Positions 32,895 to 38,512 of a DNA stretch of 64,000 bases are shown here, piece after piece. Both the position numbers and the translations under genes were made by a program. Within the stretch, counting starts at the first letter, position 1. Every line of letters starts with the position of its first letter. Location: NCBI GenBank assembly GCA_029262115.1, contig JAJCZZ010000072.1, positions 1 to 64,000 of the forward strand, given 5' to 3'. Below the pieces are notes generated by a model that searched no databases, was not told the DNA's origin, and saw only the letters and a program-made list of their open reading frames with translations. The DNA comes from Gemmatimonadota bacterium (GTDB taxonomy: Bacteria; Gemmatimonadota; Gemmatimonadetes; Longimicrobiales; Gaopeijiaceae).

Positions 32895-33048
32895 GGCGAA
32901 GGTGTTTCGTATCCTTGCGGATAAGGGACACCCCACGCGCAGGGGTGGATCTTGACCCCCTGCTTCGAGGGGCAGACATGTCGTCGAGAGTCGAACCCTT
33001 CGGCATGGCGGTTGGCGCGAGTGATCCAAACCCCGGAGGTGTCCGTGG

Positions 33049-34008
33049 GTGATAGGCAGGATCAAAAACAACGCTTCGCCCGCTGAGGCATCGGTAGAGC
33101 TTGATCAAATCTCGGAGTCGATCGACGCCTTTCCGCCCGACGACCGGTGGCGCTTCGCTAAGGTCACGCCTCTTCAGGACTTCGTTATTGGTCCGATCCG
33201 CGGGAATCTCTGGTCGCTTCAGAACTGTTGCGACAACTCCCGAGTACTTCGAGGTCCGGAGCATTCCGCTTGTGCACGGCAGCTCCCTTGATGCCGGAAG
33301 TGGGGACGAAATTCTCATTGATATTGAGGCGACGACCAGGCTTCTGGGCACTTCGGATCCCATCGGAGTGCCGGTCGCGTGGCGACGTGATCGCCAGCAA
33401 GGCGTGGTACGAGGGATCGTCGGGAACGTACGCCAGGACAGACCGCAAGACCTCCGCGCCCACCTCTATATGCCTCATGGAGCCGGTGTCACGTCGCGGC
33501 TCACGATTCTCGCTCGAACCAGTGGACGGCCCTCGGACTACCGTGACGCCGTGGCCTCTTCAATTAGTGACGTAGACCCTGCACTACCCATTGAACAGGT
33601 TGCACCGATGGAGTCCCTGCTCGGTGACTCGGTCGAGCGGGAGCGATTCTATACGATCCTGCTGGCGCTTTTCACGGTGAGTGCGTTGCTGATCGCCTCA
33701 GGAGGCGTCTTCGCCAGCGTCAACGCGATCGTGGCGAAGTCCGTGCGTGAGCTTGGAGTCCGGTCCGCACTTGGTGCCCATCGCTGGCGGCTCTTGGTGC
33801 TGGTTCTCCGGCGAGGAATCTCGTTGACGGTGATCGGTGGAGGAGTCGGAATCGCGATTGCTTTGGCGATCACAGAGCGCTCGAGGGTCTGCTCTACGAG
33901 GTTTCGCCGACCGATCCATTGACGTTCGCGCTGGTGTTCGTGGTTCTGATTTTTCCGGCGGTGGCGGCGGCACATCAGGCGTGCTCGAAGGAGGGGTATG
34001 AACCGTGA
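33049..34008 (+). pseudogene. ADOP-type ABC permease remnant
   Basis: Remains of a MacB/FtsX-like permease of the acidobacterial ADOP type. In the first frame, NNASPAEASVELDQISESID and GPIRGNLW match the periplasmic domain. A second frame (33101-33922) continues with TTPEYFEVRSIPLVHG and ends with the four-helix core (ILLALFTVSALLIASGGVFA, SVRELGVRSALGAHRW). A third frame from about 33880 supplies GLLYEVSPTDPLTFALVF and runs to TGA 34006-34008, with no normal PARRAA-type ending. The first membrane segment between frames one and two is missing. So at least two frameshifts and one internal deletion are present. It is a decayed gene, and no ATPase partner is nearby. Confidence 0.85.
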
Positions 34009-34056
34009 GATATGGGAACGACGGTGACCGGGCGGGGCACTCGACTCCTCGAACGG

Positions 34057-35046
34057 CTAGCAGCCGGTGCGAACAAGAGTCCAGGGTCGGGGCGGGGTCG
34101 CCACGAGTATCACAAATCCGTCGGATGTCGCCCCAACCACCTGCGAGTCATCGGGAAGGGCAAGTTCCATCACGAGATCCCAGCTCCCTTGACGAAGGAC
34201 CGTCGCAGATGTGTGACGGACGTGTGTGCGACTTGCGTCTGGCGCGGATTCCAGACTCCCATGGACTACGGCGAGAAGCGAGTCACAGACCGCGAAAAGA
34301 CCAGCGATCACATCAAAGGAATTAAACCAATCCTGTCGTCGAACGAGACGATGCGGTCCCGCTAACGCGCCCGGCTCAAGGGGCGCATTGCGGAACCAGG
34401 CAGGAGCAAGGATGCTGTCGCGGACTACGCCAGATGTATTACGTACTGAGATCGGATACGTGAGGGACCACCCGGTCAACCAGATGTCGCCGAGCGACAA
34501 GAAGAGACTCCGGTTGAAGCTTCCAACGTATGGATAACTGGCGGCAGGCTCCGGTGGTTGGAGCCGCATTGTATGCGTCGTTCGCCAATCATCGTCAACC
34601 CACACGAGACCTGCCGTGCGTGATCCGATGACCCCTGAGAAGGCGAATCCGCCGTTAGGTTGAGGGACTATCGTACCCAGCGGAGCAACAGGCGTGCGAA
34701 AGGTCGTATCGGTCGAGAGATCCCATCGAAGACGTGTAGCTCGGGAAAGCCGACTATCGAGCACTACAACGGCTCCCCCGAGTTCCGTTACCCCACGAAC
34801 ACGACGGTACTCTCCCCGACCGTCTCCGAATCTCCCAACCGAAGCAAGAAGGCGCCCCGCGGCTGAGTATCGGTGTAGTCGCGGCAGAAGAGCGTCCGCC
34901 ACCAACATGGAACCATCCGTACTCTCGTAGAATGGACCGAACTCGGCGAGGGGATCGTCGGGAGCCTCCCCGAGCATGATTGTATCGATCGGAGGGAATT
35001 CGTCCCAGAAGCTAGCCGAGGGGAGGGGGGGCATCCGAACAACCAA
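34057..35046 (-). CDS. Six-bladed propeller protein, leader out of frame
   Basis: About 329 residues of a beta-propeller of the 6-bladed NHL-like lipoprotein group (FGPFYESTDGSMLVADALLP, YRRVRGVTELGGAVVVLDSR). The frame opens with only TTG 35046 and no export signal. Directly upstream, in the neighbouring frame, ATG 35086 encodes a good lipoprotein signal (MRGGIGVASTITLLGCSDAP). The two frames meet at a run of seven G on the plus strand (35025-35031), and removing one base would fuse them exactly. The functional gene was probably 34057-35086. Whether the extra base is a mutation, phase variation or a sequencing error cannot be told here. Its neighbours are also damaged. Confidence 0.65.
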   Translation of the reverse strand: MVVRMPPLPSASFWDEFPPIDTIMLGEAPDDPLAEFGPFYESTDGSMLVADALLPRLHRYSAAGRLLASVGRFGDGRGEYRRVRGVTELGGAVVVLDSRLSRATRLRWDLSTDTTFRTPVAPLGTIVPQPNGGFAFSGVIGSRTAGLVWVDDDWRTTHTMRLQPPEPAASYPYVGSFNRSLFLSLGDIWLTGWSLTYPISVRNTSGVVRDSILAPAWFRNAPLEPGALAGPHRLVRRQDWFNSFDVIAGLFAVCDSLLAVVHGSLESAPDASRTHVRHTSATVLRQGSWDLVMELALPDDSQVVGATSDGFVILVATPPRPWTLVRTGC

Positions 35047-35090
35047 GAAGAGTGATTGTAGACGCGACCCCGATCCCGCCCCTCATGGGC

Positions 35091-35431
35091 CTAGTGATCG
35101 GACTCAACCGATGGCACAACAGTCCTCAAGCGTCGTGTAGCATCCGTCGTCGTAGCAGTCGTCGCTAGTCGGTTGCCAGAAACCGCGAGAAGCTCCTCTC
35201 GGTGAGACCAGGGGCGGAATTCGCTGGGCAGGCTCGCCCGACCCAGAGGTGTACCATCTGAATGGAGGACAAGCCACGAACGCCATTTTTGTCCAGGTCG
35301 CCTGGGCAGCGATCCAGGTCCGTCCATTTTCGTCCACCACGAGGCCACCACGAGGCCACCAAGAGGAGAACGCGCAGGTCCATTGGTCCAGGCCGCTTCT
35401 GTCGCCGGTGTGCGTAATGGAAGCGCGTCAA
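35091..35431 (-). pseudogene. C-terminal remnant of a beta-propeller gene
   Basis: Two frames on the minus strand together read LVVDENGRTWIAAQATW and then SWLVLHSDGTPLGRASLPSE, the usual final blade of 6-bladed propeller lipoproteins (compare the ending of the gene at 47.1-48.3 kb). The frames switch at an AAAAA tract near 35285-35290. An 11-bp tandem duplication of GAGGCCACCAC at 35341-35361 adds a second frameshift; with one copy removed, the upstream codons read into the same blade. No start is present. Probably the same ancestral gene as the fragment at 38.2-38.5 kb. Confidence 0.7.
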
Positions 35432-35575
35432 TACGGAGTTATTGGAAATTCCTGATGACCAATGATGGGAGTGAGGCTTGTTTCATCATTCGGCTGCACG
35501 GTCGGACGCACTAGCTTAAGTTCGCTCGGCCACCGGCCACATCTTGGCTGACTCGTATCGAAGCTAGCTGACTGC

Positions 35576-37336
35576 ATGATTGATATCGAACAAGAATCGC
35601 TCTTCACTGAGGTTGCTCTTCCGAGAGCACCGGCGATTTCTGAAGCAGTGGAGCTTCTACGCACTTCCGGCGGTGTCGAGGAGCGTGGCGCTGTCTTCAC
35701 AGCAACGGAGATCGTCCACGCGATTCTCGACCTGTGCGAGTATGTGCCCGAGGCAGAGCTGGTCCAGAAGAGGTTGCTTGAGCCCTCGTTTGGTGGGGGG
35801 GACTTCCTACTTCCGGCCGTTGAGCGTCTCCTTGCCTCAGTATCGAGTCGAGGGGAGACTCTGTCATCAGCCCTTCCGGAGCTTGCCGGGTGTATCCGCG
35901 CTGTAGAGTTGCATCGGCTGACGTTTGAGGAAACCCGCAAGAAATTGTACGCGCTCCTCGTCGGCGCGGGCCTTCACAGGACGCAAGCCTATCAGCTTCT
36001 GGACGCGTGGTTGATCAACGATGACTACCTGCTTCAGGAAGGCCTCGGTGAGTTCGACGCGGTGGTAGGTAATCCGCCGTACGTTCGACAGGAGCGGATC
36101 CCGAATGTCCTGCTGAGCGCGTACCGCGAGCGTTTCCACACGTTCGTTAACCGGGCGGATCTATATGTGCTGTTTTATGAGAAGGGACTACTGTCGCTCT
36201 CGGATGGCGGACGGCTCGGCTACATCTGCGCCAACCGCTGGGTGCGGAATCAATACGGCGGCGCACTCCGCTCTTTGATCGGCAAGCATTTTCATCTGGA
36301 GTATTTTGTGGACCTTGAGCGCGCCAATGCGTTCAAGTCATCCGTGATCGCGTATCCAGCGATCACGGTGGTCCGGAAGTCGCCTCAAACATCGACGGTC
36401 TTGGCGGTGGGCATGCGCGATTCTGCCGACGGACTGACAGATCTAGTGCCTCGATTGAAGCGGGGTGCGGTGGACAAGAGCACGCTTGAGGCCGGGATCT
36501 CACGCGTCAATGTCGTTCGATCGAGCCGAGAGCCGTGGCTTCTGGACGCACCTGGGATTGTCGCTCACCTGCGGGATCTAGAGGAGCGTTTCCCTGGCCT
36601 GGAAGAGGCTGGGGCACGGGTAACCATTGGTGTGGCTACGGGTGCGGACCGTGTGTTTATCGCACCGTTCGACGAGCTGCCAGTCGAAGACTCCCGAAAG
36701 CTCCGACTCGCCATGGCCTCTGACTGCAGGAATGGACGAGTCGAATGGGGTGGATTCGGAGTTGTGAACCCATTCATGGCGGACGGTAGCTTGGCGCCAC
36801 TCGATGACTTCCCACGGTTCCGCACCTATCTCGAAGGGCATGAGTCGGTCCTGCGGGCTCGGCACGTCGGCAAGAAGAACCCAACGCGTTGGTATAAGAC
36901 GATCGACCGGGTCTATCCCGACCTTACAACGACTCCGAAGCTTCTAATTCCAGACATCAAGGGAGACGCTGCGATTACGTTCGACCCCGGGGATTACTAT
37001 CCACACCACAACCTGTACGTCGTCACAGGCACCTCCTGGGACATTCAAGCCCTACGGACATTGTTGCGTTCGTCCTTGGCCCTGGCCTTCGTAGCCGCAT
37101 ACTCGCCGCGCATGTCGGGAGGTTTCATGCGTTTTCAGGCACAGTACCTCCGCCGCATCAGGTGCCCTCATTGGGCGTCTCTTTCCGACGGGAATAGGGA
37201 GCTGTTGATCGGAGCCGCGTCGAAGGAAGCTGCCGAATGTGACGCAGCGGTTTTTGAGGCGCTCGGCATCAAGTCGCCAGCTGCAAAGTCACTGAAACTG
37301 TTTGCGGAGAACTCGAGAGTTGGGGGGAGTGACTAG
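35576..37336 (+). CDS. N6-adenine DNA methyltransferase (type II, Eco57I/PaeR7I-like)
   Basis: A 586-residue modification enzyme. Motif I is LLEPSFGGGDFLLPAVERLL (about residues 70-88), the catalytic NPPY is at about residues 166-169 (VVGNPPYVRQERI), and the C-terminal half is a TaqI-like target-recognition region (NPTRWYKTIDRVYPDL, FRAQYLRRI-like ending). Length and domain order fit the methylases paired with PaeR7I/XhoI-type endonucleases, so m6A modification of CTCGAG is the expected specificity. Its TAG stop overlaps the endonuclease GTG by one base. Both flanks contain pieces of a propeller gene on the opposite strand, so the cassette was probably acquired. Confidence 0.9.
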   Translation: MIDIEQESLFTEVALPRAPAISEAVELLRTSGGVEERGAVFTATEIVHAILDLCEYVPEAELVQKRLLEPSFGGGDFLLPAVERLLASVSSRGETLSSALPELAGCIRAVELHRLTFEETRKKLYALLVGAGLHRTQAYQLLDAWLINDDYLLQEGLGEFDAVVGNPPYVRQERIPNVLLSAYRERFHTFVNRADLYVLFYEKGLLSLSDGGRLGYICANRWVRNQYGGALRSLIGKHFHLEYFVDLERANAFKSSVIAYPAITVVRKSPQTSTVLAVGMRDSADGLTDLVPRLKRGAVDKSTLEAGISRVNVVRSSREPWLLDAPGIVAHLRDLEERFPGLEEAGARVTIGVATGADRVFIAPFDELPVEDSRKLRLAMASDCRNGRVEWGGFGVVNPFMADGSLAPLDDFPRFRTYLEGHESVLRARHVGKKNPTRWYKTIDRVYPDLTTTPKLLIPDIKGDAAITFDPGDYYPHHNLYVVTGTSWDIQALRTLLRSSLALAFVAAYSPRMSGGFMRFQAQYLRRIRCPHWASLSDGNRELLIGAASKEAAECDAAVFEALGIKSPAAKSLKLFAENSRVGGSD

Positions 37337-38097
37337 TGCCGCCCAGCCTCCTACCCGCCGGATTCGACGACATAGTTGGTGATGCCGTGGGCGTCTTTTG
37401 GGCCTCACGGTCAACGGGTTCGGACGCTCAGGCCGGAAGCCGTGGCAACGTGGTGGCTGGAAAGAACTTGGATGGATTCACCGAGGTCACCCGCGCCGTG
37501 GCCGCGCATTGCGGACTATCTGAGGACTGCGTATTCGCGAAGGGGCGCAAGTACCTCACGCTGCCTGGTTACTACAGGCCTCATAAGAACTGGGACGTGC
37601 TCGTGATTCGGGAAGGCCGTCTCTTGGCGGTTCTCGAGTTCAAGTCTCAGGTCGGCTCTTTTGGAAACAACTTCAACAACAGGGCCGAAGAGGCGATCGG
37701 GAATGCCACCGACCTGTGGGTGGCGAACTCTGAGGGGGCTTTTTCACCGGAGCGTCACCTTGTCTACGAAGGGCCTCCACCTGCGGACCCACGTCCTCCA
37801 TTCCTTGGCTACCTGATGCTCTTGGAAGAATGCGACGCCTCGACCCGGCCGATCAGCGCCGAGTCCGCCCAATATCCGATTCTCCCAGAATTCGCCGGTG
37901 CCTCGTACTCTGACCGGTAGAGGCTCCTCTGTGAGCGTTTGGTTGAGAGAGGGCTATACCACGCGGCCGCCTTGGTCATGTCACCTAGGCCGGCCGGGCC
38001 ATACGTCGGATGGGCTGGCGTGTCGAAGGCGACTAGCGTGCGCAATCTATACGCCGAGCTAGCTGGGCGCCTCCTTGCGGCCATGGAAACCGACTAG
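37336..38097 (+). pseudogene. PaeR7I/XhoI-type endonuclease with in-frame amber codon
   Basis: A homologue of PaeR7I (recognition CTCGAG). The hallmark GSFGNNFNNRAEEAIGNATD block is intact, preceded by the nuclease core with D87 (NWDVLVI) and E101-x-K103 (VLEFKSQ). Reading stops at TAG 37918-37920, codon 195. The same frame then continues with family-like sequence (RLLCERLVERGLYHAAALVM, then NLYAELAGRLLAAMETD) to a second TAG at 38095-38097, giving 253 residues, close to the ~246 of PaeR7I. The amber replaces what is expected to be a Tyr in the RYxLLxERL helix. A single nonsense mutation fits best, leaving an orphan methylase. GTG 37336 overlaps the methylase stop. Confidence 0.85.
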
Positions 38098-38153
38098 GCA
38101 CGGGCTCCTGACAGGGGAGGGCGACCGCGACTGGAGCGGAACTTCCAATAATC

Positions 38154-38223
38154 AGTTGCCGGCTTCGTTTGCTTCGCTCACTACGACGATCACGGCTCGC
38201 ATTCGCGAGCCGTGACGGCAACT
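38154..38223. repeat. Nested palindrome at the RM cassette edge
   Basis: An 11-bp perfect stem with a 4-nt loop (38190-38200 and 38205-38215) lies inside an outer 8-bp inverted repeat (38154-38161 and 38216-38223). The side arm contains TTCG followed by CTTCGCTCAC, resembling the loop of the palindrome at 23-73. It lies where the 38.2-38.5 kb propeller fragment loses its family resemblance, 57 bp after the endonuclease stop at 38097, so it may mark the insertion junction. No T-tract follows for a normal terminator. Confidence 0.65.
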
Positions 38224-38485
38224 TTGGACGTTCACGGTATTCTCGGAGTTCGCGTTCCGTCACCTCTTCTCTCGGTGGGGAGCCGCGAACCACGCGGGTG
38301 AGTCGGCCCTGGCCATCATAAAAGTGGACCACGAGGGAATCCGTCGAGGCGATGGCTACCTCGCCGTCATGACCTGACACGAGCACTGAGCGACCGAAAA
38401 CGATGGGTACCACCAAACTACCCTGTGGTACTTCTGCAAAGCCGCGCTCTTCGCTGGGCCAAAGGCCGACGGTATCCAGTTGCAC
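38220..38485 (-). pseudogene. Middle fragment of a beta-propeller gene
   Basis: The minus strand reads GFAEVPQGSLVVPIVFGRSV, then HDGEVAIASTDSLVVHFYDG and VTERELREYRER, matching the fourth and fifth blades of the 6-bladed propeller lipoprotein family (the intact gene at 47.1 kb has the same order, including the VTQEHRR step). No start or signal precedes it, and the sequence degenerates at the nested palindrome. The expected continuation (final blade) lies on the same strand at 35.1-35.4 kb, beyond the restriction-modification cassette. Confidence 0.65.
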
Positions 38486-38512
38486 GGTGGAGGGATGAAA
38501 AGAGGGGCCGAG

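What the first reader, a model, noticed from the sequence alone, without database searches (positions are those of the whole stretch)
37336..38097. PaeR7I-type endonuclease interrupted by a single in-frame amber codon
After TAG at codon 195 the frame continues for 58 codons of recognisable PaeR7I sequence to a full length of 253 residues, and the amber sits where a tyrosine is expected in the RYxLLxERL helix. The nuclease core is upstream of the stop. A nonsense mutation probably silenced the enzyme and left an orphan m6A methylase; rare readthrough would make a small amount of full-length nuclease. Of note, the gene itself contains a CTCGAG at 37633-37638.
Basis: partly seen in the sequence, partly recalled or inferred. 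Interest (0 to 1): 0.75.

Follow-up and report, generated by a model that had tools for sequence, protein, structure and literature searches.

The report
Restriction enzyme broken by stop codon
A bacterium's DNA-cutting defence enzyme of the XhoI/PaeR7I kind carries one stop codon that removes its last quarter, while the partner enzyme that marks the bacterium's own DNA still looks intact; this is an ordinary, well-known way for such defence systems to decay.

Summary
The + strand ORF 37336-37917 (194 codons) ends in TAG at 37918-37920, and the same frame runs on for 58 codons to TAG at 38095-38097. The downstream piece is real PaeR7I/XhoI sequence: the family score rises from 182.7 to 223.6 bits when the TAG is read through. 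The amber replaces a tyrosine found in all 90 alignable relatives. None of these relatives ends near residue 194. A predicted structure puts the amber inside a confident helix; the missing part holds a further strand and the C-terminal helix, and the model aligns with type II enzymes such as PspGI, BsoBI, SgrAI and EcoRI up to residue 244-253. No amber-suppressor tRNA was found, TAG is a normal stop here, and a same-genome control shows no general read-through or error problem. The upstream methyltransferase is intact and 48% identical to the PaeR7I methylase. Best reading: a recent nonsense mutation inactivated the endonuclease and left a probable CTCGAG m6A methylase. Rearranged PaeR7I-type endonuclease genes occur in three other genomes, one beside a near-complete methylase. 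A consensus error or mixed strains cannot be excluded without reads. Ordinary restriction-modification decay; low interest.

The parts
35576..37336 (+). Intact N6-adenine DNA methyltransferase of the PaeR7I/XhoI kind (586 aa; motif I EPSFGGGDF, catalytic NPPY)
   Evidence: PDLC03313 MTase_II 649 bits; Eco57I PF07669 80.8 bits; 48% identity over 549 aa to PaeR7I methylase of pRSB105; no stops inside
37336..37920 (+). Open 5' part of the PaeR7I-type endonuclease gene, 194 codons plus TAG; contains the catalytic D87...E101-x-K103
   Evidence: PF04555 166.6 bits alone; catalytic columns invariant in 42 sequences
37918..37920 (+). In-frame TAG at codon 195, where relatives have an invariant tyrosine
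37921..38097 (+). Continuation of the same frame: 58 codons of conserved PaeR7I C-terminal sequence (rest of helix 191-204, strand 210-216, helix 235-251) and a TAG stop
   Evidence: Score gain of 30-41 bits on reading through; 64% identity to L005 in this part; AlphaFold2 model
33000..38500 (.). Stretch of lower G+C (58-61% against 66-73% at its edges) holding the restriction-modification pair; probably acquired

Best explanation
The locus is a horizontally acquired two-gene PaeR7I/XhoI-type restriction-modification system whose endonuclease gene has been inactivated by one recent nonsense substitution at codon 195. Translation ends inside a conserved helix, so the product lacks the end of that helix, a further strand and the C-terminal helix and is expected to misfold or fail to act as an endonuclease. 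The methyltransferase is intact and, by homology, should still put m6A in CTCGAG, making it an orphan methylase by loss of its partner. Shown: the stop, its place, the conservation of what is missing, the intact methylase. Inferred: loss of activity, recency, specificity. Basal read-through would at most give traces of full-length enzyme, which the methylase would make harmless to the host.
For: Reading through the TAG raises family scores. Tyr195 and Arg194 are invariant and all usable relatives run past residue 225. The model places the amber in a helix with pLDDT above 90 and the tail in confident secondary structure; the model aligns to PspGI, BsoBI, SgrAI and EcoRI from its N-terminal helix to residue 244-253. 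The gene is otherwise undecayed: 1 of 52 conserved columns before the stop and 1 of 5 after it deviate, like an intact relative, and window-specific and L005-specific changes are similar with four of five outgroups. The tail's nonsynonymous divergence (0.26) equals that of the methylase (0.26) and of the first 60 codons (0.26). No CTA-anticodon tRNA among the tRNA genes found in the genome. 11 of 29 long window ORFs end in TAG. Of 64 ABC-transporter matches in the same genome none holds a stop. Rearranged endonuclease genes occur in other genomes: L021 (near-complete methylase, endonuclease lost after about residue 184), G174 and G004; in the class, 6 of 9 carriers are intact and 3 broken, this one included.
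Against: No reads, so the base itself is unverified; no activity data; the assembly is 95.7% complete, so a suppressor tRNA could be missing. With only one lesion the tail shows no decay, which fits a recent loss but equally a consensus error or a polymorphism.
Confidence: 0.8

Rival explanations
1. The TAG is a consensus or sequencing error, or the allele of only part of the population, and the cells carry a working restriction-modification pair.
For: The gene is otherwise free of lesions and evolves like an intact gene; the genome is a 110-contig assembly with 2.7% estimated contamination.
Against: Stops inside genes are rare in this assembly: 0 of 64 ABC-transporter matches and 1 of 27 short-chain dehydrogenase matches, the latter beside what looks like a frameshift. 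Restriction endonucleases are known to decay often.
Confidence: 0.14
2. The full-length enzyme is made by read-through of the TAG, as a way to keep restriction low.
For: The tail is still conserved and in frame.
Against: No relative out of 90 has a stop there; no CTA-anticodon tRNA found; TAG is a common terminator here.
Confidence: 0.03
3. The 194-residue protein, alone or with a separately started C-terminal fragment, is a working split enzyme.
For: Catalytic residues lie upstream; an in-frame TTG at 37939 follows an AGAGG by about 14 nt.
Against: The break lies inside a helix, the best restart is a TTG with poor spacing, and no relative is split there.
Confidence: 0.03

Closest known systems
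PaeR7I restriction-modification system (CTCGAG; methylase makes m6A at the fifth base; PMC3031569)
   Same: Same gene order, methylase then endonuclease; 48% and 43% identity over most of each protein
   Different: Endonuclease interrupted by TAG at codon 195; no DNA-invertase gene seen upstream as in pRSB105; specificity not tested
Unnamed intact pair on soda-lake sediment contigs L005/L006 (filed as Wenzhouxiangella sp. and Clostridia)
   Same: 76% (endonuclease) and 62% (methylase) identical, same order, endonuclease of the same length
   Different: Endonuclease intact, tyrosine at 195
Orphan methyltransferases next to degraded endonuclease genes (Seshasayee et al., as reported in PMC6471742)
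   Same: Intact methylase beside a broken endonuclease
   Different: Lesion is a single nonsense codon; the methylase's retention cannot yet be told from mere recency

Membership tests
PaeR7I/XhoI type II restriction endonuclease (PF04555) | Profile match over the family cut-off | tested here: met
   196.9 bits read through, 166.6 truncated, cut-off 25
PaeR7I/XhoI type II restriction endonuclease (PF04555) | Catalytic D...E-x-K of the PD-(D/E)XK kind | tested here: met
   D87, E101, K103 invariant in 42 sequences; model aligns to PD-(D/E)XK restriction enzymes
PaeR7I/XhoI type II restriction endonuclease (PF04555) | Complete C-terminal part in one open frame | tested here: not met
   TAG at codon 195; all 90 usable relatives continue
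PaeR7I/XhoI type II restriction endonuclease (PF04555) | Cleavage of CTCGAG | not testable with these tools
   Needs an assay
PaeR7I-type m6A methyltransferase | Full-length match with motif I and NPPY | tested here: met
   PDLC03313 649 bits over 544 residues; alignment to PaeR7I methylase
PaeR7I-type m6A methyltransferase | Methylates the adenine of CTCGAG | not testable with these tools
   Needs long-read methylation calls
Orphan methyltransferase from a decayed restriction-modification system | No working cognate endonuclease in the genome | tested here: met
   Only one PF04555 match in the genome, with one TAG; by sequence only, in a 95.7% complete assembly
Amber-recoded or amber-suppressing genome | tRNA with CTA anticodon, or TAG not used as stop | tested here: not met
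   No CTA anticodon among tRNA genes found; TAG ends 11 of 29 long window ORFs

The most novel reading that the evidence does not exclude
The amber is a maintained low-level switch: basal read-through yields just enough full-length nuclease for weak restriction while the methylase protects the host.
Probability: 0.02. Interest if true: 0.6.

Novelty: new member of a known kind. Interest (0 to 1): 0.15.

Why it matters
It is a clean snapshot of the first step in the decay of a mobile restriction-modification system: one lesion, everything else intact. If the stop is real, the organism should carry methylated CTCGAG sites without restriction. It adds one example to a known process and needs no new mechanism.

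Tried and rejected
Solved-structure search by sequence gave only chance matches to gamma-crystallin, so no solved structure of a relative was found that way; Foldseek alone gave no significant hit and the second look was used. NCBIfam has no model for the endonuclease. Amber suppression was rejected for lack of a CTA tRNA; one 30-bit tRNA-like match, C24:66912-66973, was not confirmed by ARAGORN. Avoidance of CTCGAG as a trace of past restriction: none in the window. dN/dS could not be computed because synonymous sites are saturated against the nearest relative; relative-rate counts were used instead. No copy was found in the one sampled genome of the same genus, so the age of the stop could not be dated. 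Three literature searches returned nothing. The plasmid record with a fragmentary match (L148) has no methylase beside it and was not used as a parallel.

Full report
The observation. ORF listing, translation and raw sequence confirm a GTG-started frame at 37336 that overlaps the end of the methyltransferase gene by one base, ends in TAG at 37918-37920 after 194 codons, and continues in the same frame for 58 codons to TAG at 38095-38097. The CTCGAG at 37633-37638 is present; so is another at 37312-37317. The window holds 39 such sites against 39.6 expected, so neither is notable.

More than chance. Fifty-eight open codons by themselves have a probability of about 0.14 at the local base composition; the evidence is homology. 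The truncated protein scores 166.6 bits against Pfam XhoI (PF04555) and 182.7 against PADLOC PDLC03540; with the TAG read as a residue the scores are 196.9 and 223.6 and the match extends nearly to the end of the protein. Relatives were fetched from genome and viral contigs and from sampled genomes of the window's wider lineage. In the alignment residue 195 is tyrosine in all 90 usable relatives (L021, a rearranged gene, is excluded), arginine 194 is invariant, and no usable relative ends before window residue 227. The nearest relative, L005/L006 (76% identical, soda-lake sediment contigs), is uninterrupted and has a tyrosine codon at the position.

What is lost. An AlphaFold2 model of the read-through protein on a 41-sequence alignment has mean pLDDT 89 and pTM 0.88. 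The amber falls inside helix 191-204; the missing part also contains strand 210-216 and helix 235-251, with high confidence. Invariant residues D87, E101 and K103, upstream of the stop, fit the catalytic pattern of PD-(D/E)XK nucleases. Foldseek gave no significant match to solved structures, but VIA-align places the model with PspGI (Z 9.5), NucC, BbvCI, BstEII, BsoBI, SgrAI and EcoRI, with aligned ranges running to residues 244-253. These Z-scores are moderate, and ranges give end points only. Taken with the conservation, the tail is part of the normal fold, and a 194-residue product is unlikely to be a working endonuclease. That last step is inference.

Is it decay, error or recoding? Apart from the TAG the gene shows no sign of decay. 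At columns conserved in at least 90% of relatives it deviates once in 52 before the stop and once in 5 after it, about as often as an intact relative; window-specific and L005-specific changes are similar with four of five outgroups, with an excess in the window tail mainly against L015 (8 against 2). Nonsynonymous divergence of the tail (0.26) is higher than that of the whole upstream part (0.15) but equal to that of the first 60 codons and of the methylase. Synonymous sites are saturated, so dN/dS could not be used. This fits one recent nonsense mutation; it would also fit a consensus error. Against a general problem, 64 ABC-transporter domain matches in the same genome contain no stop and 27 short-chain dehydrogenase matches contain one, next to a second piece in another frame. 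Against recoding, no tRNA with anticodon CTA was found and TAG ends 11 of 29 long ORFs of the window.

The partner and the setting. The upstream gene encodes an intact 586-residue Eco57I-type adenine methyltransferase with EPSFGGGDF and NPPY, 48% identical over 549 residues to the PaeR7I methylase of pRSB105; the endonuclease is 43% identical to the PaeR7I endonuclease there. PaeR7I recognises CTCGAG and its methylase modifies the fifth base to m6A (PMC3031569), so that specificity is inferred here. The pair lies in a stretch of 58-61% G+C from about 33000 to 38500, between flanks of 66-73%, and only 9 of 394 sampled genomes of the class carry the endonuclease family, both consistent with acquisition. 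Of 91 fetched endonuclease loci, 72 have a related methylase ending within 400 bases upstream.

Parallels. Loss of the endonuclease is seen elsewhere in this family: in L021 a methylase matching residues 15-582 is followed by an endonuclease gene that departs from the family after about residue 184; in genome G174 only endonuclease residues 186-220 remain behind a methylase that lacks its first 67 residues; in G004 the endonuclease has an internal deletion and a frame change. A published survey cites earlier work in which a number of orphan methylases neighbour degraded endonuclease genes (PMC6471742). The present case therefore belongs to a known kind of event. That the methylase is intact may reflect only how recent the loss is.

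Verdict. Observation confirmed; interpretation supported, with read-through an unsupported extra and read-level confirmation outstanding. Interest is low because the process is well known.

Noticed in passing
window 33101-33922: ORF matching only the FtsX-like permease C-terminal domain (31.5 bits), without a long partner ORF upstream; probably the remnant of an ABC permease gene, in the same lower-G+C stretch as the restriction-modification pair.
   Followed up: partly
L021 749-3370: Myxococcota contig with a near-complete PaeR7I-type methylase followed by an endonuclease whose last quarter is replaced by unrelated sequence, an independent loss.
   Followed up: partly
L005 and L006: Nearly the same 4.1 kb contig is filed under Wenzhouxiangella and under Clostridia, so at least one of the two bins is wrong.
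   Followed up: no
G000:C85:67708-68279: Short-chain dehydrogenase match split in two pieces with one TGA, probably a frameshifted gene in the window's genome.
   Followed up: no
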